NCBI GenBank assembly: GCA_020726505.1
Contig: JAHLEZ010000049.1
Span: 62,001-126,000, forward strand
Length of the DNA: 64,000 nucleotides
Source: Leptodontidium sp. MPI-SDFR-AT-0119
Lineage: Eukaryota; Ascomycota; Leotiomycetes; Helotiales; Leptodontidiaceae
Reading direction: 5' to 3'
In this document: one piece after another, positions 1 through 63,195 of the stretch
How positions within the stretch are numbered: the stretch's first letter is position 1
Layout: the number at the start of each line of letters is the position of its first letter
The notes under the pieces: model-generated
Told to the model about the DNA's origin: nothing
Seen by the model: only the letters and a program-made list of their open reading frames with translations
Databases searched by the model: none
Program-made: the position numbers and the translations under genes

Positions 1-3000
1 ACTGTAAAATTATCCCCTTCTTTCGCCGTACTACTAGCGTATTCTATGGCTTGTGTAATAGCTTCTAGCTCGCCGTTATATACTAATTCGGCCTCCCCTA
101 AATTACCTATTTTTGTAAAAGTAGGTATAAGGGGATATCCTTGTGTATGTGTATAAACAGCTATGCTATAGCCTACTCCGCACCCTTCAGGAGTCTGAGA
201 GCCGTCTGTATAAATAGAGGTATTCCGACTATTATAAATACTTTGTAAGTATTGTAAGTGAGCCTTAGCTTCGTCTTCTTTAGATAACTTAGATATTTTA
301 AAAATATAAGGTACTTCTCTTTCCCATGGAGGGAAATAGAAGTGCCTTATTACTTCTAGAGTATTAAAGTCAATTATATGATATATTGAATAAACTAGGC
401 TTGAAATAGTAGTAATTGACTCAGGTAAAATACCTAGTAAGTCATACTCCTCATTAGCTCCTGTAATAACCTTTTCGACTTCGAGCCTAATAGGGTGTTT
501 TTTACTGAGTTTTAGGGCGCGGAGAATATAGCGCCGACTAGTATGATTTAGTCTAATATTAGGTGGAGGTAAAGCTGCTTCAAGCTCTGATGGAATTATA
601 GGTGCTGTTTTAAAGACCCCTAATATTTTCTTGGTAGCTAGGTTTTGTAAAGCTTGAAATAGTCTAATTATAGCCTTGTTAGGGCAATTGATTTTCCACC
701 ATAATATAGAACTATAGTCGGCTACGCTAGTAACACAAGCCATATATAATTGACGAATTGCAAAAGGGGAGAGCCTAATGGTAATATTTGAGAGTCGATT
801 TATACGGTAAAACATTTGCTTTGCAAGGGAAACTCTAATTGACCTATGATTCTTAAATTTAAGGTTTGAATCAAAATATATTCCTAGCCATTTAACTAGC
901 TTACTAGGGGCTAGTGTAGTATTATTTGGAAGTGTAATATTAAGGGTATTCTTACTTCCATAGAAGTGAATAAGCTCTGTTTTTTCAATATCAAAGCTAA
1001 TAGAATATTCTTCCCCTAATTTAACTAATAAGCTAGCTTCTCTTTCTAAAATACTTATATTTTTTTTGAAGCTTTTAGAAGAGGCTATTAATGCTACATC
1101 ATCCATATATGATATTGGCTTAATATTCTTAGACTTAAATAAGTCCCGAATATATATAAGGAATAGAATAGGTGAAATAGGGCTCCCTTGAGGGATACCT
1201 GTATTTACTACTTGAAATTCCTCTAATTTATTATCAAAGGCAAGTTGTAAAGTACGGTTTTCTAAAAATGACGAAATCCACAAAATTAGACTTATTGGTA
1301 ATTTCAATTGAGTTAAAACCTGAATAAGACGATTCTTGGAGACATGATTAAAAGCTCCCTTGACGTCAAGGAATAGAGTAGTAGTTTTAAGCTTATTTGC
1401 CTTATTAATCTCTACTTCTGTTTGTAAAAGTAAAGCTGCGTCAACAGCTGATTTTTTAAGTCTACTACCGATTTGACTATTGTGTAATAAAGTAGTTGTT
1501 TCAGCTAAGTAACTTAGGCGCTTAGCTAAAATTCTTTTAGAAACCTTACTTAGGCAATTAAGTAGTGATATAACTCTATATGCCTTAGGTTTAGAATAAT
1601 CCGGTTTTTTTGGTTTCTTAAGAATAAACCCCGTAGCCTCTTTCCAACACTTAGGGTGGTACCCTTGATTTATAAGTATTGAATAAGTTATAAAAAAGAC
1701 TTCTGGGATAGCTAAATAAGCTTTAATTATAATCTCTTGAGTAATTAAGTCAGGTCCAGGGGTTTTGCCCTTAATCTTTGAAGTATATGAATCCTTTAGC
1801 TCTACTTTAGATAAAATAGGCCATTTCCAAGTATTACTACTTATATATGACGTTAAATCAATAGGCGCTGAAATAGGAGGTTCTAGAAATAAAGTACTTC
1901 TAAAAATATTACACTTTTGTTGGAAAGTCGACTCTAATTCTTTAGTCTCTAAATTATAAAGACTTGGTATAAGAGAGCTAGTACTATTTTTGGTATATGA
2001 CATAGCTTTAAAAATCGACTGGGAATCCTCTTTTTCTAAGAACTTATTCCAATGCTTTCTTTTTTTAACCTTAATAGTATTAAAATAAAGGTTTTTAGCA
2101 TCTTTTAGTTCTTGAAAGTAGAGGGTATACCCTGAGGCCTTATTTAGACGGTAATATCTTTGCATTGATTTCCGTAATATTTTAAGATCCTCATTCCACC
2201 AAGGTTTACTAGCAATTGACTTATAAGATCTAGGAATAGAATCTTTAGCCGCTTGAATTATATTCCTAGTAAATAGCTCCCCTAGGTCATCAAGCTCTTG
2301 ATTTGTATACTTAGAATTAGGGTTATAATTAAAGTCCTGAAAATAATTATTAAGACTTTTATTAAACTTTACTCAATCTGCTTTCTTTGTATTAAATCGA
2401 GGGACCTTTAGGGGGCTAGTACTAATACTACTACAAGTAAATGTAATAGTAAATAGTACCCCCAAGTGATCTGAACTTAGATCAGGCAATATTTGCTAAT
2501 CTTCGACTTGATTTACTATTCCTTGAGTAGTAAATGTAAGGTCTAATACAGAAGGGGCCTCTATATGTGGTCTATAAAACGTTCCTTCCCCGGGAGTATT
2601 TAATAGGCTCAAAGAGTGTTTTTCAATTAAGTCTAATAATACCCCTGTATTACCGCTTTGCGGTGTAATAGGGTCCCACCACGGGTGATGTATATTAAAA
2701 TCCCCTAGTAATATCGTTTTATTTAAGAATAAGTCTGGTAATAAACCTATTCTTTGTAAGGTTTTAATACTACTAAGGGATTCCGACTCAGGGTGAGTCG
2801 CATTATAAACATTAATTATTTGAGTTTTATACTCAACTAAGTCTAAAATAATACAATCAGGGTCTTGTGGTGAGCTAAGCGCTAGAGTAGTACTAATTAA
2901 GTCTAGTATATAAAATAAAGCTCTAGGCCTAAGAGAACCGTAATTCGGGAGCACTTGTTTAAAACTAGGGTGTAAGACGCTACGAAAGCCGTCAATATTA

Positions 3001-3131
3001 TTACTAATAGTCCAAGGCTCCTGAATTGCTAATATTGATATATTTAGCTCTATAGCCGACTGAAGAACGTGCTCTGTAGTAGAGAGACTCTTATTCACAT
3101 TAATTTGTAGTATTTTAAGACCAATTATCAT
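1..3131 (-). pseudogene. LINE ORF2: endonuclease, reverse transcriptase, RNase H (two stops)
   Basis: ORF2 encodes the enzymes for target-primed reverse transcription. The N-terminal endonuclease (3131-2496) shows QEPW near residue 38, LLGDFNIHHPWWD and SVLDLTF, as in exonuclease-endonuclease-phosphatase enzymes. The reverse transcriptase follows, with IPQGSPISPILF and the catalytic SYMDDVALIA box near 1090-1120. RNase H has IYTDGSQTP near 200-220 and ELVYNGELEAI near 60-100, and continues past position 1. The start ATG (3129-3131) lies inside the end of ORF1, a 17-bp overlap that suggests coupled translation. Two in-frame stops are seen, TAG at 2496-2498 and TGA at 2373-2375. Both sit where a Trp codon fits, as expected from G-to-A change. 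Catalytic residues visible in all three domains are intact. Confidence 0.9.
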
Positions 3132-4707
3132 TAACTGTGATTGGTTCGTCTACTATAATAGGCCTATTAGTACTACTAATATTATTTGCTTTATTTTTTA
3201 TTACTAAGTATACCTCACATAGCTTAGAATCAGCCGTATGAGTAATACTATTACAATTTGCGCATCTCATACTTAAGTGTAAGCACCTAGTATTTGATTT
3301 ACAAGTATTACAATTATGTTGTCTACTTGTATGGTTTTCTGCGCATAAAATACACTTCTTATTCCTTTTACAAAGGCTTTCAGAGTGCCTAAAACCAGCG
3401 CATCTAGTACATTGAGAAGTACTAGGAGTAGTTATGTATTTTACTACTTTAGCTGAAATACCCGCAATATAAAGCCTATTTGATATAGCTCTTTTTGCTT
3501 GCTCTTGGCTTGGGAAAGCTACTATAATAGTACCTGTTTGTACTAGGCCTGAGTCGCGTTTTTCTTTAGGAGTAGTCTAAAAGGATTTTCCTACGGGAGT
3601 AAAACCTTTATTAAAGGTTTGAATCTCTTCAGCGACTAGCTTAGAGTTTAATCCCTCTTCTGTATTAAACTCCCTAATAGGGATACCATAAATAGCAACC
3701 TTATACCATGGCTCTCCTCTCTGAATTACAATCAAATCGGGAAGCACCCCCTTAATAATTGACTCGTGTAAAATCAAGAACTCAACATCAAAATCAGGGG
3801 TAGTAGTAACTACTAAATTACCCCTTAAAGAAAGGGAAACCGAAGAAACAACTAGTCCTTGTATTCCCTTCTTATTAAAAGCCGAATTAAGCAAATTGCG
3901 CGTAGTAATAGAAGAGAAGGTGTTTGCTTGGACATTCCGTGCCTGTAAGAGGGTGCATCTCTTAGTAAGAGCAAACTTACCTTTGCCTTTTTCGGTAGGG
4001 TTCCTAGGGCTACCCGGAGCCCTAGCCCTATTCCCCTTAGCACCGCTATTACTAGTACTACTAGTTGCTATGCTGTTGACCTGAGTTGTTGTTGTTGGTT
4101 GTTGTAAGTGAGCTTTTTCGGCTATTTTGGCCCAAGTAGTTGACTTAGTAGCTTGTGTTTCGATTTTCTTTGTTGCTCTCTCTAAGTTAGCTACTTGAGA
4201 GGCTAGAATAGAAGTCGTATTCTTGATTCTATTGTGTTCTGTGTATTCCCTGAATATTTCAAGTAAATCAAGTAGTTTCCCTTGCTTGTCCCGTGACTTA
4301 GTAGCTGAGTATGCTCTTACTAGTAAGTCTCTGGCTTCAAGAACTAGCTTTTGGCTAGTATTACTAGTTTGACTACTTTGGAAGTAGGTTTGGTTTTGGT
4401 GATATTTTCCATTAAAGTCTGTATTGATTCTTGGCGTCTTGTTGATGTGTTGGTTATTAGTGGGGTTGTTTAATGGTCCGCGCTTTACAGGGGCCAGTTA
4501 AGCCGCACTAGTCGATAAGAGCCGAATAGGGGTATTTTGCCCTCGGGAGTTGGAAATAGAGCCCCCTAGGTCTCTAGGGGCTCTAGGAGTAGTCTCGGTC
4601 GATTCTACTACTCTTGATGGCCTAGTAGGAAGCTCTCTTAGGTCTCTAGGCGTTGGTGTAGGTGTGGGGGGCTCTGAGGAGTCGAAGGGGTCGAATAGGG
4701 GCTCCAT
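3115..4707 (-). pseudogene. LINE ORF1: gag-like RNA-binding protein with three zinc knuckles
   Basis: ORF1 proteins coat the LINE RNA. The frame begins with MEPLFDPFDSSEPPTP, a Pro/Thr-rich low-complexity region. A Gln/Asn-rich stretch and a probable coiled coil follow (about 4300-4150), then a conserved globular part near 3890-3580. The C-terminus carries three Cys-His knuckles between about 3420 and 3210: CTRCAGFRHSESLC (CX2CX4HX4C), CILCAENHTSRQHNC and CANCNSITHTADSKLC. Three knuckles are usual for the I/Tad type. Two stops interrupt the frame: TAA at 4498-4500, fitting a former Gln codon, and TAG at 3577-3579, fitting a former Trp. The natural stop at 3115-3117 overlaps the ORF2 start. 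Confidence 0.88.
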
Positions 4708-17841: not shown

Positions 17842-18719
17842 CGTGCGTTATTATAGGAAGGTCGTAGTAAAGTAAGTTAATAGTGTCGTCAATTAAAATA
17901 TAAGAAAGTAACTGAAAATGCGGTGTATTAATTACTAAAGAAATATAAAGGAAACCCCCTCCCTTAAAACAGAAAGTATATAAACTCTCGCTTACTTTAA
18001 AGCGAAATAAATGTTAATAACTCTTAGTGAAGGTTTAAGGCTGTGTTCCTTAGTTAGCCCCTAATAAACGCTAATAACTACTAGACTAAAATAAACACGC
18101 CCTAAAGCTTAAGGCTTGTACACAGAAATTATAAAACAATAAAAGTAAATATAATAGGAAAATAAAGTAAAGAGATTAATACTTGGCGTAAGTTACTTAG
18201 GCTTTAGACTAACCTAAAAGTTTTATGTCTCGCCGAATACTCTAAAATACAGGCTCGCCAGTACTCTGCTTAAGCCTTTAATATATTAATTCTAGTTTTA
18301 TTATAGAGTCTCGACTTTTCTTAGCGTTTAAAGAATACTAGTTACGTCTAGAAACACTAGAACTTTCGCTAAGAATAGAAACTAGTACGAAGTGGCTAGG
18401 TATTATATCTCGGAATAATAGAATTAAAATAGTAGCCTAAGGAAGACAGATTTTCTAGTACTATAAGTGCTCTCACTTTATAGCTTTCTTTAGTTCCTTA
18501 GTAGTCTTCGTTCTCCTTAGGTTAAAGGTCTGTATTCTTTATATTCGTCGTTTTGCCTTAAGGGCTAAGAAATAACTAACTAAATAGCTCCCTTAGTTTA
18601 GACAATTATTGTTTTTCCTAACTCTCCTTGTATAAGTTAATATATAAGGGCCTTATTATTATACTTACTTAGTTCCTCTTCTAGTAGTAACTCACTCCCT
18701 ACGTTAATTACTAGAAATA

Positions 18720-18999
18720 TATAGGAGGGACGAACCCTAATTTACATAATAAGAGGGTAATATATAACGAGCCACCGGAGGAGATTTTAGGCTTTGTAAA
18801 TAATAGATTAATTAAATCTAAAGATATTATATATTTAGAGAGTACGAATTAGCAAAGGAGGGGAGGGAAAAGGTTCTAATAAATAGAATATATCTAGTAT
18901 TACGTTCTTAACGTTCTATAGTCAAGTGTTAACTCCTTATATATACGAAGGACTAGCGCAGTCATGTGACAAAAGAAATCAGGGGCTGTCCCTACTACA
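18720..18999 (-). repeat. gypsy-family LTR (5' LTR of gypsy-1), 280 bp
   Basis: It aligns end to end with the LTRs of gypsy-2 (20904-21183 and 40495-40774). The first bases are TATAGG where the others have TGTGGG, a G-to-A change at the terminal TG. The right end is CTACTACA where the others have CCGCCACA. It is followed at once by copia-3 DNA. Confidence 0.9.
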
Positions 19000-19030: not shown

Positions 19031-19785
19031 CTACGAAGCTAATCCGAAACAGGGCCGAATACCCTATAAATATATATCTAGAAGAGTCTCCTCCTCCGCG
19101 CCACTACGACGACTTCGGCAGGGACGCTTAGTGGGAGGGGCATCCTCACTACTGTCCTCCTCCCTACTACGCTTAGTGGCGGCGGTGGAGACGGTAGTGA
19201 AGAGCCGATCTAAGATTAGTATTGTCTCCTTTATTATAGTGTTATTAATACTTAAAGCTTTAATATTAAAAAGGAATAAGGGGGTTAACTTATTACTTGT
19301 GAGTTAGCTAAGCTAGCGATTTCCCGGCGTAGAGCGCGAGTTTCCTTTAGTAACGCTAACGACACCTCCTTAGTATTTTTTAGTATATTAGTAGCGGCGA
19401 CTAACAATGCCGAATCGATTGATTCAGCGGCAGTAACGATAGCTTCTTTATCCTCTGCCTTGAGGGCAGTAGCTAATTAGATATACTCCTCGGCTACGAA
19501 CTAAGGGATCTATTAGATGTTAGTAACTATATATTCGGAAGGGTTCCGACGGTGATTCGGATATAATTTAGAGGGAAAAGAAAATAGGAATACTTATTAG
19601 GTTATAGCGGGACTTCTTCTTTGCGTAATATACACACTTCTTGTTCTTGGGATTATTAAAGACACAGTCGTAAGACGGGGTCTTTGCGAGGAGACGAACG
19701 CACCGAATGCAGCATTTTTAGTATGCGACGTCGAGGGCTCTAGTGGGGATTAGTGCTAGTACTGTTTTCAGTTAATACACCGTTT
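19031..19785 (-). pseudogene. copia-3 antisense accessory gene: Cys-cluster protein
   Basis: This is read opposite to the element's own gag-pol. The N-terminal part shows KCCIRCVRLLAK, DCVFNNPKNKKCVYY and KKKSRY. The spacing is CX2C-X11-C-X9-C-X2-[Y]-X6-[Y], where the two Tyr fit Cys codons changed G to A. A helical middle follows, with AEDKEAIVTAAESIDSALL and LLKETRALRREIASL. A basic tail with TKRSREE and TKRPCRSRR ends at FGLAS and a stop at 19031-19033. The helical and basic parts are in different frames, so an intron or frameshift lies between them. The start codon is not clear. The Cys pattern resembles zinc-binding clusters in many fungal proteins (Zn2Cys6-like or DUF3716-like); function is unknown. 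Confidence 0.7.
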
Positions 19786-20559: not shown

Positions 20560-20903
20560 ATAATAAAGGTAACTATTACTAATATTAAAGAGATTAACTA
20601 GAAACAGGCGGCGCTAAACGACCTTCACATTCCTCTTAAGAAGAAGAAGGCCGTGTAAGCTCTTTTTAAAGCCTATATTAAACGGGCCATAACTTATTCT
20701 TTTGACAATGTCGTAGTAAGAAAGGGGCAAGGATTTAGCGTTCTATTACAGTTAGTATCTAGTCCCTTATAAATATCGTGATTTTATTAACACAAATATA
20801 AGTGGACTACCTAATGTAAGGAAGACCTTAACAGCAGAGTTAATTACTAACCATCTTCGAAGGCCACTTATGCCAGTCTCTACTAGTAAGCTTAGTATAA
20901 TAG
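20560..20903 (+). pseudogene. AAA+ ATPase pseudogene, upstream fragment (Walker A part)
   Basis: The frame gives FDNVVVRKGQGFSVLL, matching the segment before the P-loop in large fungal AAA+ ATPases. An intron (20751-20802, GTTAGT...AAG, with TTAAC branch-like site) then joins in frame to a degenerate Walker A, GLPNVRKT (20804-20827), where GPPGVGKT is usual, followed by LTAEL and LRRPLMPVS. The gene is cut by copia-3 on the left and gypsy-2 on the right. Removing gypsy-2 and one copy of ATAG restores the frame into 40779. Stops TAG and TAA sit in the first exon. The 5' part lies outside the window. Normal role: ATP-driven remodelling; its substrate cannot be inferred. Confidence 0.72.
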
Positions 20904-21183
20904 TGTGGGAGGGACGAACCCCAATCCACATAACAAGAGAGTAGTATGTAACGAGCCACTAGAGGGGATTCTAAGCTTTATAAATAATAAATTAATTAAA
21001 TCTAAAGATATTGTATATTTAAAGAGTACGAATCGACAAAGGAGGGGAGGGAAAAGGTTTTAATAAATAGAATATATCTAGTATTATATTCTTGACGTTT
21101 TGTAGTTAAGTGTTAGCTCCTTATATATACGAAGGACTAGCTTAGTTATGTGACAAAAGAAATTAGCGGCTGTCCCCGCCACA
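20904..21183 (-). repeat. gypsy-family LTR (3' LTR of gypsy-2), 280 bp
   Basis: It begins TGTGGGAGGG and ends CCCCGCCACA, with terminal TGTGG/CCACA inverted bases. It is followed by TG and then a C7 tract, which on the coding strand is the polypurine primer expected next to a 3' LTR. Confidence 0.88.
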
Positions 21184-21790: not shown

Positions 21791-21987
21791 TCGTAGAGGT
21801 GACGTAGTAGAGAGCTTTCCTTGCTTGCTTGCTTCCTTCTTGCTAGACAGTAACTTCTTCCGTGACACTTGCGTTGACTTATGTATAGTCTCTCCTTAGC
21901 TTTCCGCACCTCGATCTCTAAATAGTAACTTTAATATGAAGTTAAGTCGCCTTAACGCGGTAAGTTGACCTTTTATAATACTATCTG

Positions 21988-22694: not shown

Positions 22695-23434
22695 GTGCCT
22701 ACACTAATACCTACAGGAGCGCTCGACCTCGTATACCGCAAATGCTATATTCAGTGCGTTCGTCTCCTCGTAAAGAACTTATCCCACGAATACGTCTTTA
22801 ATAATCCTAAGAGTAAGAAATACGCATATTACGTAAAGAAGAAGTCCCGGTATAACTTAGTAAGTATTCTTATTTCTTTTCCTTATTTTAAATTATATCC
22901 GAATCCTCGCCAAAAGTACTCTAGATATACGGTTATTAATATATAATAGATTCTGTAGTTTGTCGCCGAAGAATACCTTCGTCTAGTTACTGCCCTCGAG
23001 GTAAAAGATAAAGAAGTTATTATTACTGCCGTTAAATCAATTAATTCGGCATTATTAGTCGCCGTTACTAGCGTACTAAAGACTACTAAGGAGTTGTCGC
23101 TAGCGTTATTAAAGGAAACGCGCGCTATACGCCGGGAAATCGCTAACTTAACCAGCTCGTAAGTAGTAAGTTAACTTTCTTATTCCTTTTTAATATTAAG
23201 GCTCTTAAGTATTAACGCTTTATACAATAAGAGACGGTATTAGTCTTAAACCGGCTCCTCACCGTCGTCTCCTCTACCGCTACTAAGCGTAGTAGGGAGG
23301 ACGGCGGTAAGGACAATCCTCTTACTAAGCGCCCCCGCCGAAGTCGCCGTTATAGCGCGGAGGAGGAGGACGAGAAACCTCTTTTAAATATTTATAAATA
23401 AGGGATTTGGCCCTATTTTAAATTAGCTTCGTAG
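22695..23434 (+). pseudogene. copia-2 antisense accessory gene: Cys-cluster protein
   Basis: This is the counterpart of 19031-19785, read opposite to copia-2 gag-pol. The N-terminal part has KCYIQCVRLLVK and FNNPKSKKYAYYVKKKSRY, with several Cys positions now Tyr. In the same frame after stops at 22944-22949 comes a helical middle, FVAEEYLRLVTALEVKDKEV and LLKETRAIRREIANL. The tail is in another frame: TATKRSREDGGKD, LTKRPRRSRR and an acidic stretch, ending FKLAS with stop 23432-23434. GTAAGT at 23159 could be an intron donor between the last two parts. The preceding 22246-22690 would hold its promoter; TATATAACGTG lies near 22457. No ATG start survives. A role in DNA or RNA binding is only a guess from the Cys cluster and basic tail. 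Confidence 0.72.
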
Positions 23435-49290: not shown

Positions 49291-49605
49291 ATACTTAAGC
49301 CACACCAGGTAATGCTACTAGGTAATACTACCCGGTAATGTTACCCGGTAATGCTACCCAGAGTTCCCTAGAGCCGGGAACCAGGAACTAGATATTGGCT
49401 CATACTTAAGTCACACTACTAAGTAATACTACCTAAGGTTCCTTAGTACTGGGGGGTCTAATTATACTTAAGCCACACTAGGTAATACTACTAAGTAGTA
49501 CTATTAAGTAATGTTACTAGAGTTCCCTAAAGCCGGGAACCAGGAACTGGATGTTAGCTCATACTTAGGTCACACTACTAGGTAATATTACCCCGAGTTT
49601 CCTAG
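49291..49605. repeat. Complex tandem repeat, period about 173 bp
   Basis: The start ATACTTAAGCCACAC at 49291 recurs at 49464. A variant ATACTTARGTCACAC occurs at 49402 and 49561. GAGCCGGGAACCAGGAACT-like segments recur at about 49370 and 49530. Nested inside are 10-bp blocks of the form GGTAATRCTACC. Two long units plus part of a third are present. Confidence 0.75.
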
Positions 49606-49611
49606 AGTAGA

Positions 49612-50153
49612 GCTTCCTATACACAACTCCCCATGTAAATCTCCCTATATAAATCTCCTTATATTAATCTCTTTATATATAACTTCCCGTGTATAACTTC
49701 TTATATACAACTTCCTATACACAACTCCCCATGTAAATCTCCCTATACTAATCTCCCTATATATAACTTCCCGTGCACAACTTCTTATACACAACTTCCT
49801 ATACACAACTCCCTATGTAAATCTCCCTATGTAAATCTCCTTATACTAATCTCCTTATACTAATCTCCTATACACAACTTCCCATGCACAACTTCCTATA
49901 TAAATCTCCCTATACTAATCGCCCTATGCACAACTTCCTATACACAACTTCTTATACACAACTCGCCATATACACAACTTCTTATACACAACTCCCTATA
50001 CTAATCTCCTTATACTAATCTCCTTATACTAATCTCCTTATACACAACTTCCCGTGTATAACTCACTATGTGCACAACTCCCTAAATAAACCCCTTACGT
50101 AGAACTCCCTATATATAACTCCCTAAGTTTCCCTAAACAAATCTCCCTATAAG
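49612..50153. repeat. 14-bp minisatellite array, about 38 units
   Basis: Units alternate around AACTTCCTATACAC, ATCTCCCTATATAA and AACTCCCCATGTAA, each 14 bases with a constant CTYC(C/T)(C/T)(T/C)AT core. The array begins right after the 173-bp repeat and decays near 50100-50153. Several sub-variants recur in the same order, pointing to higher-order duplication. No reading frame runs through it. Confidence 0.85.
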
Positions 50154-52379: not shown

Positions 52380-53350
52380 CCTTAGGGAAGGGAAACCCTT
52401 CGCGTATACTCTCTTATTACTTATATAATCGTCTTAGGCAGGCAAGGAGCCGATTATAATAATCGATCGGGAGAAGTAGTCTCGTAATCGTCGTTATTAT
52501 TTAAAAGAGTAAATTAATATAGATTCTAGACGTGTTAAATTAGTGAGCTTATTATTATTTTCAATGTAACCGTCGATTTAATCTAGATAGTAAAGCACAT
52601 AATATCGTAAAGTCCTTAATAAGAGCTCGTAAGCCTTTTGAATTCTCCTCTTATTAGCTTTGTCTTTTATATTATATAAACTTTATAAGAGTATTATTAC
52701 CCTTACTATTTTTACTTTTAAAGTATACTAGCGGATACTATATTCGTCACGACATCTAGAGAAGAGGCGTTCTATATTAACTTTAAATATTAAACAAGGC
52801 AAGAAATCACGCGCCGCCTTTATAAGTTAAGGCTATTAAATTACTACTCCTTTTATTACTTATATAAGAAGTCGGGGTCGTTATTAACACGTTTATTTTA
52901 GTCTAATAGCGCCGATTAAAGCTATTGATTTAACTTAGATATAATAGCTTATAGGCTAGCCTCTTAATCTCGCGCATGCTTATTTTATATCGCTTTTTAA
53001 TATATAATTAATATATTATTAGGTCGTTTAATAAAGGGCACAAGTTATAGATCTAGTATTTAGACTTTAGCGAGTGCTAGCCACTTAGTTATTATATACT
53101 TTTTAATTATACTTATAATCGTGTCGTATTAGCCTAGTATTATATCTACGATTATAGATGTCTTATAATAAGGGTCTAAGATATAAGCTGTAAAAATCAT
53201 CGCGTTCTTAGCCTTTAACTTCGTGTATTTAAGGTGTTTTACTTTATTAGCCTTAAACGCGTCTCAAATAGTTAAATTAAGCTCTTTATACTTGTCCTTC
53301 CCTCCGATGACTTTATTAAGTAAGTCATTTAGATCCTAGTATATCTCGAG
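52380..53350 (-). pseudogene. hAT transposase, C-terminal half with dimerisation domain
   Basis: Right to left the frame reads LNDLLNKVIGGKDKYKELN, AYILDPYYKTSIIVD and later KAARDFLPCLIFKVNIERLF, SRCRDEYSIR and YTLKVKIVRVIILL (about 52860-52640). The ARDFL...ERLF...RD pattern is the hAT family dimerisation region. TAA/TAG breaks and at least one frame change occur. It ends near 52380 without a clear stop. The gypsy-3 target duplication TCGAG (53346-53350) marks the cut. Confidence 0.72.
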
Positions 53351-53627
53351 TGTAAGGTGTTGAGTATCACGGTAGGCAAAGCTTATAAAATTACGATTTA
53401 GAAAATGTATTTAAAACTAATCTCTAGCCTTCTAAGAAGTCTAAAGGGGAAGCGTATATATAAAGGGGGTATTCTGTGCGGGGCACTAAAGCACTAGCGT
53501 GCGAGGACATACGTAGTCGTGACATGCCCTACTACTATTTAGACAAATAAAGTTCATTACACCCCCACATCAGCATTAATCCTCAGGCTTCTTAGCTTAA
53601 AGGAAACAAGTGCGCGTATATATAATA
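53351..53627 (-). repeat. gypsy-3 3' LTR, 277 bp
   Basis: It begins TGTAAGGTGTTGAGTATCAC and ends GCGTATATATAATA, the last CA having become TA. It is preceded by TCGAG. Confidence 0.92.
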
Positions 53628-54319
53628 ACTATTCTCTCTCCCCGTAGTAGCGTCCGCGATACTAAAGATTCTAACTAATCGTTGTGATTTAGTATAAGCG
53701 TTCTAGAAGGTGATTGCGCGGGAAGTAAGAACTAATTAGGGTACGATACACGATCGCATCACCATCAGTAGGGCTAAGTGCTTATTAAGTAATTAGGAAT
53801 TAATAGTTAAGTACAACTAATTATTACAATATGCGCATTTAGATTACTGCGCCAAGACCGCGATACTATATTACTATTAGTCCGTTAAACGTCGTCCGAT
53901 GGCCCTATACATATTAACGTAAAACCTATTAGAATTTCGACTTAGTATCTAGGAATAACTTTATAATTAATAAAAGAAGTTTATTTTTAGTTAAAGAACC
54001 CTAGTGTAGTTGTACTAGATTTCCTATACTCGTAGAATATGTAAATATATATAAAGAGTTAATTCGACTTTGGCTAGGCGGTGGGGAAGGTACTCCTTAG
54101 TAGCGCGTTCGTGGCTAACTAATAGGTAAATGCGGTGCAAATAATGTAAACAGGTATTTAGTAATTGCGGCTCCGCGCCCTCGCCGAGGACGTGTATATA
54201 TAACGCGTCTTAATTATAATAACAACTTTTCTTTAGCTCCCTTATATCACACAACTACCCCGGTGCCTTTACTTCTCTTAATAAATCATTTAATTATCCT
54301 TATTTATACTATTATTATT

Positions 54320-55077
54320 ATAAACTTTACTTGTTTTACTAAGAACATTATCTTCGACGACCTAGCGAATTAGCCTTAGCGCGATTCTTATGGCTAGTGT
54401 TTTAAAGTAATGCTAATTAATTCAACTATCCGCTGTATTAATAAGAAAGGTAAGAAGAATTGCAATCGTTGCTTCGCTATAAAAAACGCTTATATCTTAG
54501 TACGTACTTACTCTTGTAGGCTTTTATTAATAATAACGCGTTTTAACTTAGCGAAGGTAAACCGTATACTAACCACAAAGTAAATAGATTTCGCGTGCCT
54601 TTTATAAGAATGTCTATATTATAAAGAACCTTGCCTTAGATTTTTAATTTTAGCTTTAAGATAACTAATAGCTTTCCTTTAATAACTTTACGAATAATAT
54701 TAACCTTTTAGTCCCCGAGGGTATTTAGAACTTTTCCGCTTAGCTCTTAAAGTATAATATAATTAACTTCTTCTCGCGCGTTACCCTTAAGCCTAATAAG
54801 AAGAATCCTAATTAGGTTTTCCCTTTAGAAAGTGCCCTTAAGGTAAGTCTTATTCCCCTAGCGATTCGCCGGTAGTATATTAACGAAGTCTTAGGAATTT
54901 TATAAGTTTTATAAGAGAATAGTGCGCTTAATTAACAATATAATTAAGTTCAAGAACGCGTACACTACCACTTCCGCCTTCGAGTTCGACTAGATCCTAC
55001 ATAGATTACTAAAGGAACTCGTGGTAGAGATTCGAATATACCGCGAAGTTATAATAGTTATAGTAAGTTATTCGTAA
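54320..55077 (+). pseudogene. gypsy-3 antisense accessory gene: Cys-cluster protein
   Basis: This is read opposite to gypsy-3 gag-pol, between the chromodomain and the 3' LTR. The first part reads NIIFDDLAN, then CFKVMLINSTIRCINKKG and NCNRCFAIKNAY, giving CX2[V]-X8-C-X8-C-X2-C-X6-[Y] with Cys codons at 54398, 54434, 54461 and 54470. The spacing is close to the copia accessory protein. Stops in frame before the Cys cluster are TAG where Gln or Trp would fit. A later part in another frame reads IVRLINNIIKFKNAYTT and LLKELVVEIRIYREVI, ending at TAA 55075-55077. A TATA-like GTATATATAACG at about 54193 precedes the gene. The exon structure is unresolved and the function unknown. Confidence 0.6.
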
Positions 55078-55629
55078 CCTCCTCGCAGTTAATACATATT
55101 AATATTATACTAAGGTGGCATTACTTCTAATAACACGACTAGAGCCATCCCAGGAGATGTTTTATAATACTTTACTACTTAGTAGCGCTTACGAGTCGGG
55201 TTTAGTTTACTTTGAAGTTTTCGGGGGGTTTTTTAATAATTTGTTTTTATAAAGTAGATATCTTGTGCCTTAAGTACTTTACAATAGCGTTGCGCTATTA
55301 CTTCGTAGCTAAAATGGAACTTTTCTTTGCTCTTTATATCATTAATTATATATCGTAACATTCTTATTCCTCGCGATTTTACTATACTTCTTATACTATT
55401 GCCGAGTCTATATTAAAAGCCTTAATAAAATCCTAGAAAACCTTCGTAAGAAAATATAAAGAAAAAGTGTCTTTATTTATAGGCGGCGGTGTTTTCTTAG
55501 CCTCCCGATCTTATGTCAAGGTTTACTAGATTTCCTCGTAAGTTGCCCGGAGGTTTTACGCCTCTTTATAACCGGCATTTGACTTTCTAACCCATAGTTT
55601 TTATTATATACGTCTAGGGTTTCCTTAGT

Positions 55630-58600
55630 ATTCTCCAAATTTAAGTATACTAAGAGTTAAGTATTATAATCTTCCGAAAAGTCCTTTCATTTAATTAAGT
55701 ATTACCTAGTTTTGCTTCTTCTAATTTGCTTATACGTAAGGATGCTTTCGACTTCCCACTCTTATAAGTTGTCTTTATCGCTTAACTTCAGAAGCTCCCT
55801 AAGGGAGAAACTCCCCGGTTCGTTACTAACTCGTGCTACATATTCTTTTAGTAATAAGACGTGGAATATTAAATATAGTCTTTTATACAAGCTTAATAAC
55901 TTCAGGGTATACGTCGTATCACTTACGCATTTGATGATTTAGAATAGACTAATGTATTTTAACGACAATTTTCTAGTCTTTAATTGTATATTTTTAGTAT
56001 TTAGTATTACTTATTGTTTAATTTAGAAGTGCTTTTCCAAATGTCGAGTATTATAGTATACTTCCCGACTCTATTACGCACGACTCCAGGCTTCCGTAAG
56101 TTTAGCCCTTTGTTTGTTTAACAACTTTATTTTGTCTTAAGCAATTAGTACATCTCCTCCCTAAATCTTGTCCTTAGGGTTTTATAGTATTACTAGTTTA
56201 TAACCGTAGTATATATAAAAAGGAGTTGTTTATAGGGACTAATATAAAGAATTATTATACGTAAACTTCGCAAATAATAGTTTAGTTACTTAATTCTTTT
56301 AAGATATCTTATAAAAGGCGCGGAGATATATCTTCAAATTTTAATTTTAACGTTTTGTTTAACCATCGGTTTGCGGATAGTAAGTAGAGCTCAGTCTTTA
56401 CTTCACATATATATAAAAGCAAAGTATAAACTAGAATTTACTAGTGAACATTATACCTCTATTAGATACGATGCCCTGGGGTACACTAAAGAAGGAAAAC
56501 ACCTTCTTAAAGAGTAGTTCCACAAGTTCGGGAACATTAATCGTTTTGCGATATGCTAAATACCGGGCTATCTTCGAATATCGGTTAATAACTACTAATA
56601 TGTAATTAAGATCTAGGCCACTATATAGGTCTTTACAAGGCGGCAACCTTATGATAAAATCTATTAAAATCTCAGATTAAGGTCGCGAAGGCCTCGGGAG
56701 ACTTACTAGAAGTTTATACGACGTATGTCGTTTCGATTTAATCCTTTAATAAATATTACATTCTTTAAGATATGTTTTAATATCGTCTTTTATTTTTTCT
56801 TAAAAGTAGGTTCTACGGAGGAGCTGCGAGGTCTTCGTAATACCGTAGTGCCTTACTAACGGGTCATTATAATAAAGTTTTATAATTTTTATTCTTAATA
56901 CTGGATTATTTAGAATATAAAATTAATTGTCTTATTAGAGAAGCCCCAATATGTTCAAATTCTACTAATTATCTTATTAAGACCTATGTTTGCCTACTAC
57001 ATTAGTTATACTTTTGTAGCTTTTATCGTTACGCTAAGCGAGGATAATTATGTCCCGCAGCGGTTCCGTTATTAGGGCTAAAGCAATTTGTTTTCTTATT
57101 ATTACTCTTATCCATAATATTAAAATTAGATATTTGTAACTATTAATCCCTACGATAAGCGGCTAGCCTTTACTCCTTATATATAATAATGTCTCTACGA
57201 ATAGAGGCATTACCTTAAGGACGTTATCTAAAAGACTAGGTTTTATATACCCAACTTCCAGAATTCTCTTCTAAGTAGCCCGCACTAGTTTTATTAACAT
57301 CGGGTTCAGCCTTTTATTAATAAGATCTTTAGTAATAATAAACATATGTCTTATTATTATTTTATAATCTTCGTCTAAGAATACTTTAATATCGGCTCCT
57401 CGACTACGTAAAGTACTCGTAAAAGCTCCTTTTAGTTTATTCTAAAATATTAGTAGTCAAGCGATATCAGTAAGGCCTTTAGATTCCTAATAATCTAGTC
57501 TCCTATTAGGTCTATTCGCGGGGTTTGCGGCCCCCTTGCGATAATAGATTTTAAAGTCATAAGTAGTAAGATATATTACCCATCGTGCTTATCGACTCTC
57601 CAAATACTTTGCTATTATAAAGTAACGAAGGTTGTTATAGTTCGTAAGTACTTTAATAGTATATAAACTATCTTTAAGGTAATGTTTTCACTTTTTAAAA
57701 TACTTTACGATAGCTAGTAGCTCTCTATCGTAAGTAATATAGTTCCACTTAGTACTAGTCATTTTACGGGACTAATACACCACGGGCTTCTAATGTTACT
57801 TAGATCTTTTTGACGAAGTATTAACTTGCTAGGAGATAGTACTAGCAATTATAAACCCAAATACATCGGTTTTAAGCCGTATACGCTTCGTAGGGTTAAA
57901 GTGTATTATAACTAGTGTACTAGTAAAAGCTGTTTTCAAATTAATAAAGCTTTTCCTAGCTACATCGGAGAACATAAAGAGTCCTTTCTTAACTTCGTTC
58001 TTTATACCCTGAAGAGCCCCCGTTAAGCTTACAGTTATCTTAGAGTACCTTAATATAAATTTGTGATAGAAATTCGTAAAGCCTAGAAAAACCTAAATAT
58101 CTTTATAAGACTTTAGTTCTAGTTATTCTTAAATAAAATAGATCCGCTTAAGGTTCGCCCAAATCTCGAAAGATTTAACTTTAAACCCTAGGAACTCGAC
58201 TTCATTTACTTTAAACTCGCATTTACTAAGTTTAATAAAGAGCTTATACTTACGTAGGCGTTTAAAGACAGCTCGAATATACTTACGATATTTCTTCTTA
58301 TTCTTAGAATAAATAAAGATATTATTAAGGTAGACTACTACGAAATAATTAATTAGCCCCGCTAGCGCTTCGTTAATATACGCTTAAAACGTAGTCGAAG
58401 TGTTAGATAGCCCAAAAGGCATCATTAGATATTCAAAATATTTATATCTTATACGGAAGGCTATTTTTTATTCGTATTTTTTTTTAAATCTTAATACGGT
58501 AGTATATATTCCTTAGGTTTAGCGCCGTAAAGACTACGGCTTCGCCGAGCCGATCTAACGTCTCATCGACTAATAAAAAAGGATAGCGGTTTTTAATCGT

Positions 58601-59420
58601 TACCTTATTTAATTTATAATAATTTATACACAACCGCAAGCCTTTATTCTTCTTTAACACAAATAATATCGGCGCACTTTCGGGACTCTTAGATAGTCGA
58701 ATCTACCCCTTTTGTAATACTGTAGTTAGATATTCCTGAAGCGTGGCGAGTTGTGGCTTAGAGAGGTTATAAAGGAGGCCGTACGGAAGTAGTGCTTCGG
58801 TATTAATCGCATGTTCGAATCCGACTTATTTTTCGAGGAGGGCAGTCGGCGGATTGTCGTCGCATACATCTGCCAAATCTACGAGCTAGTCTAGTAATTG
58901 TGTTAGCTTAGGATCTTTAATTTGTAACGCTAGTACTTATAACGGGTTTCCGCCGGCGGTATACAAACGAATATCTCACGACTGCCTCGAACATCTGTAA
59001 GATCCCTATTATCTTAGGCAATCGCATTCGAATTAGGATAAGAACATAATATATAGTACTATTTTAGGGTTAACATTAAGGGCCTTAGTAAACTCATTTA
59101 TTATTACGATTTGGATTTTATCCTAAGTCGGGGCGTAGGCCTACTTCTTGAGTTTCTAGTCGTAGTACCTGGCTCCCTTGTGTTCTAAGAACTTTATTCT
59201 AAGAACTAAGTTATACCTTAAATCTTTGTAATTATAGAATCTTTCTCGAAAGGTTCTCGAGATCCCATAGTCGTCTTATATACTTATATTAAGGTCATAG
59301 GCGTTAGTTACTCGGAAGCGGTGCTTATTAAAGGTCACGAACTTTTAATTACATTTAAATAAAGGGAGAAACCTTAATTTTTTGGCATTATATTTATTAA
59401 GAAAGTTATAATTTAAGTTA
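55630..59420 (-). pseudogene. gypsy-3 pol: protease, RT, RNase H, integrase, chromodomain (degenerate)
   Basis: The reverse transcriptase carries VVVYLNNIFIYSKNKKKYRK, with YLNN at 58321-58332 where YLDD is required. EFLGFKVKSFEIWANLKRI follows. RNase H has YQSRKMTSTK and TYDRELLAIVKYFKK (about 57850-57700). The integrase core (56646-56431 open) has LIDFIIRLPPCKDLYSGLD, and PQGIVSNRGIMFTSKF where the second catalytic Asp is now Asn (about 56461-56463). The C-terminus reads LIFHVLLLKEYV and then a chromodomain, EWEVESILTYKQI and QYLIK-KDFSEDYN. The chromodomain places it with chromodomain-bearing gypsy elements, which target heterochromatin. The protease lies at about 59400-58950 and is poorly readable. 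Confidence 0.88.
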
Positions 59421-59429
59421 CTATTTATT

Positions 59430-61347
59430 AAACTATTTAGTGACGCTTGCGTATCCGTCTCGGGTTGCTTTAGACTTGCCACGATATGTAGGCGTCTTAG
59501 AATATCCCCTAAGCCTTCGACGCTTAAGACTTGGTATTGCCTTTTCTCACATCCTTACCGGAGCTAGAGGGCTTTTATTCCCTAGAGTGTATAGTAGCGT
59601 ATACCTTTCGTTTATTTTAGAGGTTTTTCTTTATTATCTTAAAACGTTCCTTAGCTTCAGTAACTTGAGGATTATCTTACGCCTACTTTGCAAACTTAGG
59701 ACACTTGCGGTCCCTAGACTAATAGCCTTCTTATCCACAAGAGTAGCAAGTGGTATTACCTTTATTACTCTTCTCTCCATTCCTATTACTATACTTTAAT
59801 CGAGAGAAGTTCGAGGGAGCTTCGCTAATTACACGCTTCTTATTACTATGCCTAAATTGCTCTTCGCGGTGTCTTTTGTAACTGCCGCTAATATTATTAC
59901 CACCTTACTTACTTCCGTTACTATTATTCCCCGCCTTCGGCGAGTATAAGTTTACTTCCTAGGTTTTCTTAATAAAGGACTTAGTATCACTCGCCAGCTT
60001 CTTCTACTACTAGAAGGTTTTAGGCGAATTTGCGAATACGTAAAAGTTAATCTATATAACCGTTATAGCGTACGTAATTACTTCGCGAAGGTTAGTAATA
60101 ATATCTTCATTAGTCATTCTACTATTACGATCCTTAATTAAAGTAATAAATTGTCGACACATAGCCTACATAGACTCGCCTTATTACTAATAAAATCGCT
60201 TAATGTTTTTCGTTACTTTTATACTCTAAGTCTCCTTAAAGGCATAAAGCCCCTTTAAGAACTTAATAAAGTAGTTCCAAACAAGCGGAATTCCTTCGGG
60301 TCTACTCATAATTTACTTCGCATTACCTTAATAAGTTAATAGATCGCCCTCTATGTTTACTACTACGACGCGCACCCGATTAATATGCGTATTATAATTG
60401 TATAAGCGAGCTTTAAAAATCTTTTCTTAAGTATTCTTCTAATTACGTAGGCTTTTAAAACTCTTTCCCTTATATTTTTTAGGGATCGTAATTGCAAGGC
60501 ATTTTTCACGATTACGCTTATCTTTCGCCTAGCTTACGTTATGTTTTAGCAAGATGTACGCATTAGGGTCTAAGTAAATAAGTGGTATTATACTAAGCCC
60601 ATAAGCTACGCTGTTTGCCGTAAGTAAAGCGGCGGCTATCCGGGGGTTAACCAGGGGAAGGGGAAACTTAGGCTTTACAATACCTCGACGTAAGGTCGGG
60701 TATTACAAACCTAGTATATTAGTCCTTATTGCTAGGTTAAAGCTACGCTTTACTAGAGGCACATCATTGTCCCTGATTAAGGACGCTGCCATAGAGTTTA
60801 GTATTACGTTACGAGTTCGCAAAAGACTTACTTCGACAGCTCGACGCTTTACCAGCATATCCGTATTAGCGACGGACACGGCCTAAAGGCGGCGAAGCTT
60901 AGCAGCACTATTCTCATAATAGGCCAGCTTAGCCTTCGCGCGCGCGTCTTGCGCCTTGGATTTAACTAGCAAACGCATCTGCTCTTCGAGCTCGCGTTGC
61001 TTCTAATTAATCTGTTCTTTAATAAGGATGCCTATAGCCGCAAGGTCAGAATTAGTATCAGGAATTAAGAAGACTATATCATTTGTCACGTAATCGGACA
61101 TATTTAGGTCCTCTTTAGTAAAGGCACGACCTTTACTTTTCTCTTCGCGAGTAAAGGCAGGTTAGTTATAAGTATAAGATAATTCTTTATTACCTTTATT
61201 ATAAAGGCCCGGGGCTATTTCGTCATTAAATATACCCTTAATATTCTTAATAGGAAGGAAATCATTAAATTCTATTATTAAATATAATATATTACAAGCC
61301 ACATCGCCTAAGCGAGTGTTACTCGAAGGTCCAGCGCTGCCGGACAT
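59430..61347 (-). pseudogene. gypsy-3 gag (degenerate)
   Basis: The start is placed at MSGSAGPSSNTRLGD (ATG 61345-61347); an upstream in-frame ATG at 61354-61356 is also possible. The frame is open to a TAA at 61162 and then continues with stops. Near 59760-59690 a C-terminal knuckle reads CYSCG-EGY-SRDRKC, a CX2CX4HX4C motif whose His is now Tyr and last Cys displaced. A Gln/Glu-rich coiled-coil segment is likely at about 61000-60880. The plus-strand frame at 59440-59799 is an antisense shadow. Confidence 0.8.
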
Positions 61348-61410
61348 AGTAAACAAAGAACCGTTACTCTACTTTTTCGTACTACCTCCTTGTAAGTAAA
61401 GAGATTAGCT

Positions 61411-61687
61411 TATAAGGTGTTAAGTATCACGATAGGCAAAGCTTATAAAATTACGATTTAAAAAATATATTTAGAACTAATCTTTGGCCTTTTAAGAAGT
61501 CTAAAGGAGAAGCGCATATATAAAAGGGGTATCCCGTGTAGGGCACTAAAGTATTGGCGTGCGAGGACATACGCAATCGTGACATGCCCTACTATTATTT
61601 AAACAAATAGAGTTCATTGCACCCCCGCATTAGCATCGGTCCTCAGGCTCCTTGGCTCAGAGGAAACAAGTGCGCGTACATATGACA
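61411..61687 (-). repeat. gypsy-3 5' LTR, 277 bp
   Basis: It aligns end to end with 53351-53627. It begins TATAAGG (TG to TA) and ends GCGTACATATGACA, followed by TCGAG. Confidence 0.92.
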
Positions 61688-63195
61688 TCGAGACTTTGTG
61701 CTAATGACGGCATCGACTTGGAGACCTTTAATGTAAGTTATTTGAAAGGTTAGAGAATAAAAGTAAGCTAATATAAAGTAATAAGCTCGTTATTCGTTAA
61801 GAGGAGGCATTTAACTTGAGGGTAAGTGCGGATGAACTCAGTGTATTCAGCCTCGAGCTTAAGAAATTACTCGATTATATTATAAGCCGAATTCTACTTA
61901 GTGTCGACGTCGTAAATAAGCCGGCGTGTCTTTGTCTTAAGTATAATTTTTTAATCTTACTCTTAGTTAAAACTACGTAGAATCTAGAGATTAAAAAGCC
62001 AAACTTTAGTAATAGCGCTACGATTATTATTATTTAATATAATATAATCGTTTCTCTAGTAATAAGCGTCTTAATTGTCTAATATTTTCTTAGCCTCTTT
62101 AATAAAGCTAGCTTTAACGTTATTAAGTATATCTTTATAAATTAAAGTAATAATATAGGCAAGACATTAAACTTAACTTTATTTACTGTGGAATTGTATT
62201 TAAGGCCGTTTAATAGGGCTAATTCTGTCGTTATACTTGCGCTTTAACGAAATATAAAGAGCTTAGTAGAGAGTGTTATTATTACCTGCATTATCCCTAG
62301 TAATTATAAAGAGCTTGTATTTAATCTTTAACTCTTTTAATATCTTCTTTACGGCCTCTATAAGTACTTCTCTAATATACGATCCGTAGATCTCGATAAA
62401 CTTAAGAACCTCTTCTCTCTCCTCGAAGTCAAGAGTGTACTAGTATCTAATAATAGTAAATATTAAGGTTTGATTTAGGGAGGTCTATATATTAAGAGTA
62501 AAAGAAATTAAGATATAATTAATATTAAGCTCACAAATAAAGTTATCTCTATAGAGTAAAAAGTCATTGTAGACATCGTTATAAAGAGTAACACGGTTCT
62601 TATAAATATAGCGCTGCCTATAAGTAAGAAATATCTCTTAAAACTTAAGGCTCTTAATTATTAAGAACGGCTATCTCGTTTTAATAAACTAACGTCGAGT
62701 TGCCTCTTTACTAATAAGACGGCTACGTTTTAGTTTTCTCCTTGCCTAAGTGTCGAGTTTAGTATAATCTCCGCTACTAATTACTTATAAGTATCCGTTT
62801 ATATAGGCGAAGTAAATGTTAGGCGTAATTCTATGTGTTTTTAAGTATAGTTTTATCTTAGAAGTTACACTGTGTTATTTAGATTCGTAGACTTTAAAGG
62901 GCTTACGTAGGAGCTCTAATTGAGCTAAATATAGTCTACACTTCTAGTAATACTCTTATAAGTACTTAATACTATTACTTTTCTTTATATAAAAAGAGTC
63001 GTAAATAGTCTCTCTCTTTATATAATAATAGACGTAACTGTTTTTCTCTTTCTTCTTCTTTATATACTTAGCTCTATATATTACTTACTATTTAATTACT
63101 TTTATCTTCTTAGCCTTTATAAGTATAATATTCGCGAATATAAGCTCTAGAAAGTCTTTTATTTTATAATTAGAGTTATAATTTAGATCCCCGGG
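61688..63195 (-). pseudogene. hAT transposase, N-terminal and catalytic part
   Basis: Right to left: NSYVYYYIKRETIYDSFY with surrounding Lys-rich sequence (about 63060-62950), where the DNA-binding BED-type finger is expected. Then FTLNIWTSLNQT near 62500-62470 (the conserved D before the WTS motif is now N), ITRDNAGNNNTLY near 62312-62281, and WNSAYNII near 61880 after reading TAG as former Trp. These match the DxWTSPN, ITADNASNN and RWNSTY landmarks of hAT transposases. Many stops. The frame is continued at 53350 after gypsy-3. The start codon was not found and may be beyond the gypsy-4 insertion. Confidence 0.78.

What the first reader, a model, noticed from the sequence alone, without database searches (positions are those of the whole stretch)
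54193..55077. An unrelated gypsy element has the same kind of antisense gene in the same position
Gypsy-3 has 1.9 kb between its chromodomain and its 3' LTR. On the opposite strand this holds a TATA-like site and a frame with CX2[V]-X8-C-X8-C-X2-C-X6-[Y], nearly the spacing seen in the copia accessory protein. A helical segment and stop follow. Two superfamilies with the same accessory type at the same site suggest repeated capture or exchange of one host gene family, and a shared benefit such as countering silencing or guiding expression.
Basis: partly seen in the sequence, partly recalled or inferred. Interest (0 to 1): 0.8.

Follow-up and report, generated by a model that had tools for sequence, protein, structure and literature searches.

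The report
Antisense zinc-cluster gene in fungal retrotransposons
A decayed fungal gypsy retrotransposon carries, on its opposite strand next to its end, what looks like the remains of a split zinc-binding gene built like one in a neighbouring, unrelated copia retrotransposon; this suggests that two kinds of mobile element share one accessory gene.

Summary
The window is a fungal, RIP-mutated transposon nest. The chromodomain gypsy element (53351-61687, minus strand, TSD TCGAG) has 1.9 kb between pol and its 3' LTR; all ten pol 3' ends found in the genome keep this segment. Eight complete copies have no indels, and 657 of 666 variable columns are C/T or A/G only. Across copies the plus strand reads as a three-exon gene: exon 1 (to 54499) ends in a six-Cys cluster C-x2-C-x11-C-x8-C-x2-C-x6-C; introns at 54500-54587 and 54843-54894; a helical exon 3 ends at 55077. 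The copia gene (22.7-23.4 kb) has C-x2-C-x11-C-x9-C-x2-C-x6-C, its first intron at the same place and phase, and a second of the same phase; an annotated Leptodophora protein fits both junctions. The exact Cys pattern arose in 0 of 20000 shuffles. Against kinship: three profile-profile comparisons, a DNA comparison and database searches found no link, and similarity outside the Cys is weak. An antisense gene in a gypsy of this fungal order is already known (brtn of Boty); identity with it could not be tested. I favour one accessory gene family in two superfamilies; function is inference; host origin unsupported.

The parts
53351..61687 (-). chromodomain Ty3/gypsy element (LTR to LTR)
   Evidence: TG...CA-type ends (one end of each LTR differs by a transition), TSD TCGAG at 53346-53350 and 61688-61692; two 277-bp LTRs 86.6% identical, all 37 differences transitions
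53351..53627 (-). 3' LTR
   Evidence: 29 LTR matches in the genome; unrelated flanks in all 28 pairs of the eight complete copies
61411..61687 (-). 5' LTR
58132..58383 (-). reverse transcriptase piece
   Evidence: Pfam RVT_1 E 3.6e-10, above the curated cut-off
55552..55785 (-). chromodomain at the end of pol
   Evidence: Pfam Chromo E 0.0027, below curated cut-off
54195..54203 (+).
   Evidence: read; not tested, not distinctive in AT-rich sequence
54320..54499 (+). antisense gene, exon 1 (start codon and true 5' end not determined)
   Evidence: fewest stops of six frames in this block: 20 over 8 copies, others 31-69
54389..54493 (+). six-Cys cluster C-x2-C-x11-C-x8-C-x2-C-x6-C
54500..54587 (+). 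intron 1, phase 0, 88 nt
   Evidence: donor GTACGT in 6 of 8 copies (ATACGT in 2) and in L009, L010; acceptor AG in 4 of 8 and AA in 4 of 8, AA in L009 and L010; YTAAY branch-like string
54588..54842 (+). exon 2, 85 codons, starts ATTCCG (6 of 8) or ATTTCG (2 of 8)
   Evidence: position and phase; stop counts do not single out this frame (62 stops; other frames 33-88)
54843..54894 (+). intron 2, phase 0, 52 nt
   Evidence: donor GTAAGT in 7 of 8 copies and in L009; acceptor AG in 4 of 8 and AA in 4 of 8, AA in L009; TACTAAC/TATTAAC-type branch-like string
54895..55077 (+). exon 3, starts GAA in 8 of 8, helical-looking, ends at TAA
   Evidence: fewest stops of six frames before the terminal TAA: 9 over 8 copies, others 28-76; TAA in 8 of 8 and in L009
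22746..22853 (+). comparison: six-Cys cluster of the copia antisense gene, C-x2-C-x11-C-x9-C-x2-C-x6-C
   Evidence: Cys or Tyr codons in 30 of 30 held copies at each position; Cys codons in 5, 27, 13, 11, 1, 16 of 30; all six Cys present in P0002
22860..22949 (+). comparison: copia intron 1, phase 0, 90 nt
   Evidence: donor GTAAGT in 21 of 30, ATAAGT in 8; acceptor AG in 23 and AA in 7 of 30; fits the junction RCNS|IPWFV of P0002
22950..23165 (+). comparison: copia exon 2, 72 codons, starts ATTCCG in 14 of 30 and ATT in 30 of 30
23166..23230 (+). comparison: copia intron 2, phase 0, 65 nt
   Evidence: donor GTAAGT in 17 of 30, ATAAGT in 12; acceptor AG in 3 and AA in 27 of 30; fits the junction SSQV|ETVL of P0002
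23231..23401 (+). comparison: copia exon 3 with basic, NLS-like stretch
   Evidence: Glu codon first in 27 of 30; frame read; P0002

Best explanation
The segment is the RIP-decayed remains of a real third gene of this gypsy family, antisense to gag-pol between pol and the 3' LTR: three exons, two phase-0 introns, and a six-cysteine, probably zinc-binding cluster at the end of exon 1 followed by largely helical-looking exons. It belongs to the same gene family as the antisense gene of the copia element in the same window; if so, their common ancestry is old, because no DNA similarity is left. Shown here: the Cys columns, the splice-like strings, the frames of exons 1 and 3, and presence in every pol 3' end found. 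Inferred: transcription from an antisense promoter near the 3' LTR, splicing in the gypsy, zinc binding, and action as a nuclear, DNA- or chromatin-binding regulator of the element (best guess about 0.4; the copia relatives carry a basic NLS-like stretch). Introns lying antisense to the genomic RNA would survive retrotransposition (established logic of retroelement replication), which fits a gene kept with its introns.
For: Segment present in 10 of 10 pol 3' ends found. Eight complete copies have no indels; 657 of 666 variable columns are RIP-type transitions. Six Cys columns in one frame, the only hit of its class in six frames, exact pattern 0 of 20000 shuffles, held in two further copies. 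Same spacing but for one residue in 30 of 30 copia copies and in P0002. Intron 1 in both genes two residues after Cys6, phase 0, 88 and 90 nt, next exon ATTCCG in 6 of 8 and 14 of 30; intron 2 phase 0 in both, next exon starting with Glu in 8 of 8 and 27 of 30. On the plus strand of the segment only three donor-like GTRNGT strings occur in at least 6 of 8 copies, two of them these donors. Exon 1 and exon 3 frames have the fewest stops of six frames. Stops fixed in all eight copies: 9 of 205 codons of the model; in the true pol frame 25 of 499, five copies.
Against: Profile-profile comparison shows no relation (hhalign probabilities 0.2, 0.1, 0.4 percent). Residue similarity beyond the Cys is weak: 128 of 4000 shuffles reach the best-of-copies score and 290 of 4000 the mean score; for the x11 loop alone 152 and 761 of 4000. 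No DNA similarity, and tblastn of P0002 does not hit the cluster. None of 7997 scored candidates matched the gypsy reading, though that query ran in one frame across the introns. Exon 2's frame is not the least stopped. Half of the gypsy acceptors read AA, as do 27 of 30 copia intron-2 acceptors. The third Cys has a Cys codon in 1 of 10 copies, the sixth in 2 of 10; the fifth copia Cys in 1 of 30. The place of intron 2 cannot be compared. No intact copy, no transcript data, start codon unknown. The pattern and block borders were chosen after reading the copies, so the counts are somewhat optimistic; the broad-class value is 223 of 20000.
Confidence: 0.65

Rival explanations
1. A real antisense gene, perhaps of brtn type (Boty-like gypsy), unrelated to the copia gene; the common Cys spacing and intron place are coincidence or convergence.
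For: brtn is an antisense gene of a chromodomain gypsy of the same fungal order, as cited in PMC8365987, PMC7264820, PMC4227169 and PMC5987419; profile comparison finds no link to the copia gene.
Against: The six Cys spacings agree except for one residue, intron 1 agrees in place and phase, intron 2 in phase. Being brtn would not itself exclude kinship with the copia gene.
Confidence: 0.2
2. Two independent captures of members of one host zinc-cluster gene family.
For: Introns kept in both genes suggest descent from an intron-bearing gene; Cys-cluster regulators are common in fungi (recalled).
Against: No host relative found: genome searches with gypsy exons 1 and 2 list only this element (11 and 12 matches); P0002's cluster finds only P0002 and P0003, the only 2 candidates that shared words. 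RIP damage and the word filter limit the power.
Confidence: 0.08
3. No gene: non-coding 3' region of the element in which AT-rich, RIP-mutated sequence mimics a Cys motif.
For: Every frame of the eight complete copies has many stops; exon 2's frame is not distinguished by stop counts.
Against: Single six-of-six Cys hit, 0 of 20000, repeated in two other copies; donor strings in the right places; exon 3 with 9 stops against 28-76 in other frames.
Confidence: 0.07

Closest known systems
brtn, additional antisense gene of Boty-like gypsy elements of Botrytis cinerea (Zhao et al. 2011, Virology 417:248; not read, known here from citing passages)
   Same: Chromodomain gypsy (CHROMO domain named in PMC4227169), antisense gene between pol and 3' LTR (PMC7264820), order Helotiales (the closest annotated relatives of the window's copia gene are from Leptodophora, also Helotiales).
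   Different: Sequence, Cys cluster and introns of brtn could not be compared; no brtn sequence was at hand.
Antisense gene of the copia element in this window and Leptodophora hypothetical proteins ACEPPN_001709 and ACEPPN_019146 (P0002, P0003)
   Same: Six-Cys spacing within one residue, intron 1 place and phase, intron 2 phase, antisense, pol-to-3'-LTR position. P0003 as annotated has Tyr at one of the six places.
   Different: No detectable profile or DNA similarity; exon 2 72 against 85 codons; the copia tail has an NLS-like basic stretch, the gypsy reading shows none.
aORF-3R genes of plant LTR elements (Grande gene23, RIRE2, Retand, PvRetro13; PMC7264820)
   Same: Same place and orientation; some products nuclear, one with an SMC and one with a transposase-28 domain match (passages and section 8 read).
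   Different: The word 'zinc' does not occur in that paper's main text; plants.
Zn(II)2Cys6 zinc cluster (Pfam PF00172; spacing recalled)
   Same: Six Cys; second half C-x8-C-x2-C-x6-C fits.
   Different: C2 to C3 spacing 11 instead of 6; no PF00172 match.

Membership tests
Zn(II)2Cys6 cluster (PF00172) | six cysteines in two C-x2-C pairs plus two single Cys | tested here: met
   as codon columns over copies; no single gypsy copy has all six
Zn(II)2Cys6 cluster (PF00172) | C2-x6-C3 spacing (recalled) | tested here: not met
   x11 in both gypsy and copia genes
Zn(II)2Cys6 cluster (PF00172) | match to the Pfam model | tested here: not met
   no PF00172 match at E up to 10 for gypsy pieces, copia pieces or P0002-P0004
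Boty/brtn type | chromodomain Ty3/gypsy element | tested here: met
   RVT_1 E 3.6e-10; Chromo E 0.0027, under the curated cut-off
Boty/brtn type | antisense gene between pol and 3' LTR | tested here: met
   remains of one
Boty/brtn type | sequence similarity to BRTN or to Boty pol | not testable with these tools
Antisense gene family of the window's copia | six-Cys spacing with x11 | tested here: met
   x8 against x9 in one loop, otherwise equal
Antisense gene family of the window's copia | intron 1 place and phase | tested here: met
   two residues after Cys6, phase 0, in both
Antisense gene family of the window's copia | intron 2 place and phase | tested here: inconclusive
   phase 0 in both, but exon 2 does not align, so the place cannot be compared
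Antisense gene family of the window's copia | profile-profile similarity | tested here: not met
   hhalign probabilities 0.2, 0.1, 0.4 percent; low power
Antisense gene family of the window's copia | residue similarity outside the Cys | tested here: inconclusive
   128 of 4000 and 290 of 4000 shuffles reach the observed score
Captured host gene | a host gene relative outside mobile elements | tested here: not met
   none listed in own genome or among scored protein candidates; low power

The most novel reading that the evidence does not exclude
One intron-bearing antisense zinc-cluster gene family is carried by both copia and chromodomain gypsy elements of Helotiales, moved between superfamilies long ago, and acts as an element-encoded nuclear factor comparable in logic to antisense-encoded regulators of retroviruses; brtn may be another member.
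Probability: 0.4. Interest if true: 0.8.

Novelty: new variant of a known kind. Interest (0 to 1): 0.6.

Why it matters
Antisense third genes of LTR elements are known, but according to the review passages read (PMC7264820) none has a clear similarity to other proteins in databases (apart from single domain matches), their function is not known and the origin of most is unknown. A family with a recognisable Cys cluster and a fixed intron place, shared by two superfamilies, would give a first handle on what these genes do, how they spread, and why they are kept.

Tried and rejected
A single long plus-strand frame through 54119-55300 was considered first (35 stop columns against 43-57 in the other five frames) and used for alignment A1 and search 24; it was replaced by the three-exon model after the splice strings were seen, so search 24 is a weak negative. 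A two-exon model to 55127 was replaced too; alignment A7, used, still follows it. Structure prediction of P0002 gave mean pLDDT 57.7 with nearly all of the Cys region under 50, so no fold search was made. Pfam gave only weak, under-cut-off matches for the gypsy exon-1 pieces (AIR2-like zinc knuckle 0.047, Chordopox_A30L 0.08, UcrQ 0.1), and no match for RT and gag pieces 58487-58702 and 61165-61368. Viral contig scans found nothing. The PDB gave nothing. Loci L045-L074 were fetched and not used further. In checking, one search showed that I had set the copia exon 2 start three bases too far right; one search corrected it (22950). Literature: 'not found in print' for a zinc cluster, introns or a copia parallel rests on listings of searches of an open-licence library and on passages of four papers; most listed papers were not opened, and the Zhao 2011 paper was not available.

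Full report
What the window is. GC of 0.28-0.43 per 2 kb, a TA/AT ratio of 1.46-1.87 and a (CA+TG)/(AC+GT) ratio of 0.28-0.74 per 4 kb block are typical of repeat-induced point mutation (RIP). The closest annotated relatives of a gene in the window are from Leptodophora (Helotiales). The P0003 search of the own genome listed no identical match (best in the part listed 83 percent), so it is probably another genome, though that search scores only its best candidates.

The element. The gypsy element runs 53351-61687 on the minus strand, with 277-bp LTRs and a perfect TSD TCGAG. The LTRs differ at 37 of 277 positions, all transitions. RT (RVT_1 E 3.6e-10) and a weak chromodomain match (E 0.0027) place it among chromodomain gypsy elements. 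There are 29 LTR matches and 10 pol-3'-end matches in the genome. The segment 53624-55600 occurs at 14 places, 8 of them complete. All 10 pol 3' ends have it: 8 contiguous, one in two pieces (C34) and one in three (C3), with gaps of 7.6 to 13.8 kb that look like nested insertions (gaps not inspected). An eleventh copy (C22) has only the first 784 bases and no pol 3' end among the matches. The 1000 bases compared left of the 3' LTR are unrelated in all 28 pairs of the eight complete copies (22-30 percent). The segment is therefore part of the family, not a local insertion.

Is there a gene. The eight complete copies align without indels over 1977 bases; 666 columns vary, 657 of them only C/T or A/G. 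Stops are everywhere, and known coding sequence shows the same: in the integrase-chromodomain region, over the five copies that are colinear there, the pol frame has 46 stop columns of 499, 25 of them fixed. Fixed stops are therefore no argument against coding here. Scanning all six frames for columns with only Cys or Tyr codons and at least one Cys codon, a six-position pattern appears once: plus strand, first base 54389, C-x2-C-x11-C-x8-C-x2-C-x6-C, Cys codons in 5, 6, 1, 4, 3, 1 of 8 copies. No other hit exists in a class with loops of 3-20, 3-20 and 4-12; permuting columns gives the exact pattern in 0 of 20000 and any member of the class in 223 of 20000. Copies L009 and L010, left out of that scan, have Cys or Tyr codons at all 12 positions. 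The same columns of the copia gene are Cys or Tyr in 30 of 30 copies at all six positions.

Gene model. Two residues after the last Cys stands a donor GTACGT at 54500 (6 of 8 copies, ATACGT in 2; also in L009 and L010), then a YTAAY-type string and an acceptor before 54588 (AG in 4 of 8, AA in 4 of 8; AA in L009 and L010). A second donor GTAAGT at 54843 (7 of 8; also L009) is in phase 0 with exon 2; a TACTAAC/TATTAAC-type string and an acceptor before 54895 follow (AG in 4 of 8, AA in 4 of 8; AA in L009). AG to AA is a RIP-type change. In the segment's plus strand only three GTRNGT strings occur in at least six copies, and two are these donors. Exon 1 and exon 3 frames have the fewest stops of six (20 against 31-69; 9 against 28-76); exon 2's does not (62, others 33-88). 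Stops fixed in all eight copies are 2 of 60, 6 of 85 and 1 of 60 codons. The start codon is not determined.

Comparison with the copia gene. The copia accessory gene lies at 22.7-23.4 kb on the plus strand, between the RNase-H-like end of pol (by eye; Pfam did not confirm) and the repeat copy at 21917 taken as its 3' LTR. The genome search listed 41 matches, a lower bound; 30 were held. P0002, P0003 and P0004, hypothetical proteins of Leptodophora sp. 'Broadleaf-Isolate-01', fit its exon junctions, for P0002 RCNS|IPWFV and SSQV|ETVL. Donors read GTAAGT in 21 and 17 of 30 copies. Acceptors read AG in 23 of 30 and in 3 of 30, AA in 27. The first intron lies two residues after Cys6 in phase 0, as in the gypsy (90 and 88 nt), and the next exon begins ATTCCG in 14 of 30 copia and 6 of 8 gypsy copies. 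The second intron is phase 0 in both, but exon 2 has 72 codons in one and 85 in the other and does not align, so its place cannot be compared. Against kinship: hhalign finds no relation between A1 and A2, A5 and A6, A7 and A6 (probabilities 0.2, 0.1, 0.4 percent); non-Cys similarity is weak (128 of 4000 and 290 of 4000); blastn finds nothing significant between the two DNA segments, and tblastn of P0002 does not hit the cluster. The profiles are shallow (Neff 1.3-1.9) and RIP-damaged. My judgement is that spacing plus the intron agreement outweigh this, at about 0.65.

Origin. Genome searches with gypsy exon 1 and exon 2 list only copies of this element, 11 and 12 matches. P0002's cluster finds only itself and P0003, the only two candidates sharing words with it. 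No host gene family is therefore in evidence, with low power. Introns in both genes argue against capture from spliced mRNA; being antisense to the genomic RNA, they would not be removed during retrotransposition (inference from established retroelement biology).

Known precedent. Boty-like gypsy elements of Botrytis cinerea carry an antisense gene, brtn (Zhao et al. 2011, not read). I saw it in passages of PMC8365987, PMC7264820 (section 8), PMC4227169 and PMC5987419 (which reports a Monilinia transcript similar to truncated Pol and BRTN). PMC7264820 also lists plant antisense genes at the same site, some with nuclear products, and reports a promoter upstream of gene23 of Grande and an antisense promoter inside the 3' LTR of HTLV. 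An antisense gene in a helotialean chromodomain gypsy is thus not new. The Cys cluster, the intron structure and the parallel in a copia element were not found in print in the listings of searches, within an open-licence library and with few papers opened.

How it may work. Most likely an antisense transcript from near the 3' LTR, spliced, encoding a small Cys-cluster protein with helical exons, acting in the nucleus on the element's own chromatin or transcription (about 0.4). Alternatives are a role in nuclear entry or integration, or the antisense RNA itself. None was tested. Verdict: real and worth following, a variant of a known kind; the shared-family claim is probable, not proven.

Noticed in passing
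window 19070-19765, minus strand: A second, inverted copy of the copia-type antisense gene (cluster from 19711 downward; P0003 matches down to 19070) lies between two 292-bp repeats (18708-18999 and 20892-21183) that also occur at 40483; it looks like a fragment of a related copia with its LTR.
   Followed up: partly
window 49596-50088: A repeat array with a 14-base spacing; 21 overlapping register copies are listed.
   Followed up: no
P0003 residues 1-65: The N-terminal part of this Leptodophora protein matches many other places of the own genome, some with open frames of 92-546 codons, so P0003 may be an annotation fusing a different transposon gene to the copia antisense gene.
   Followed up: no
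window 2496-4497, minus strand: Long open frames (217, 153 and 306 codons), less damaged than most of the window; endonuclease-like and CCHC-like strings suggest a LINE (by eye, names recalled).
   Followed up: no
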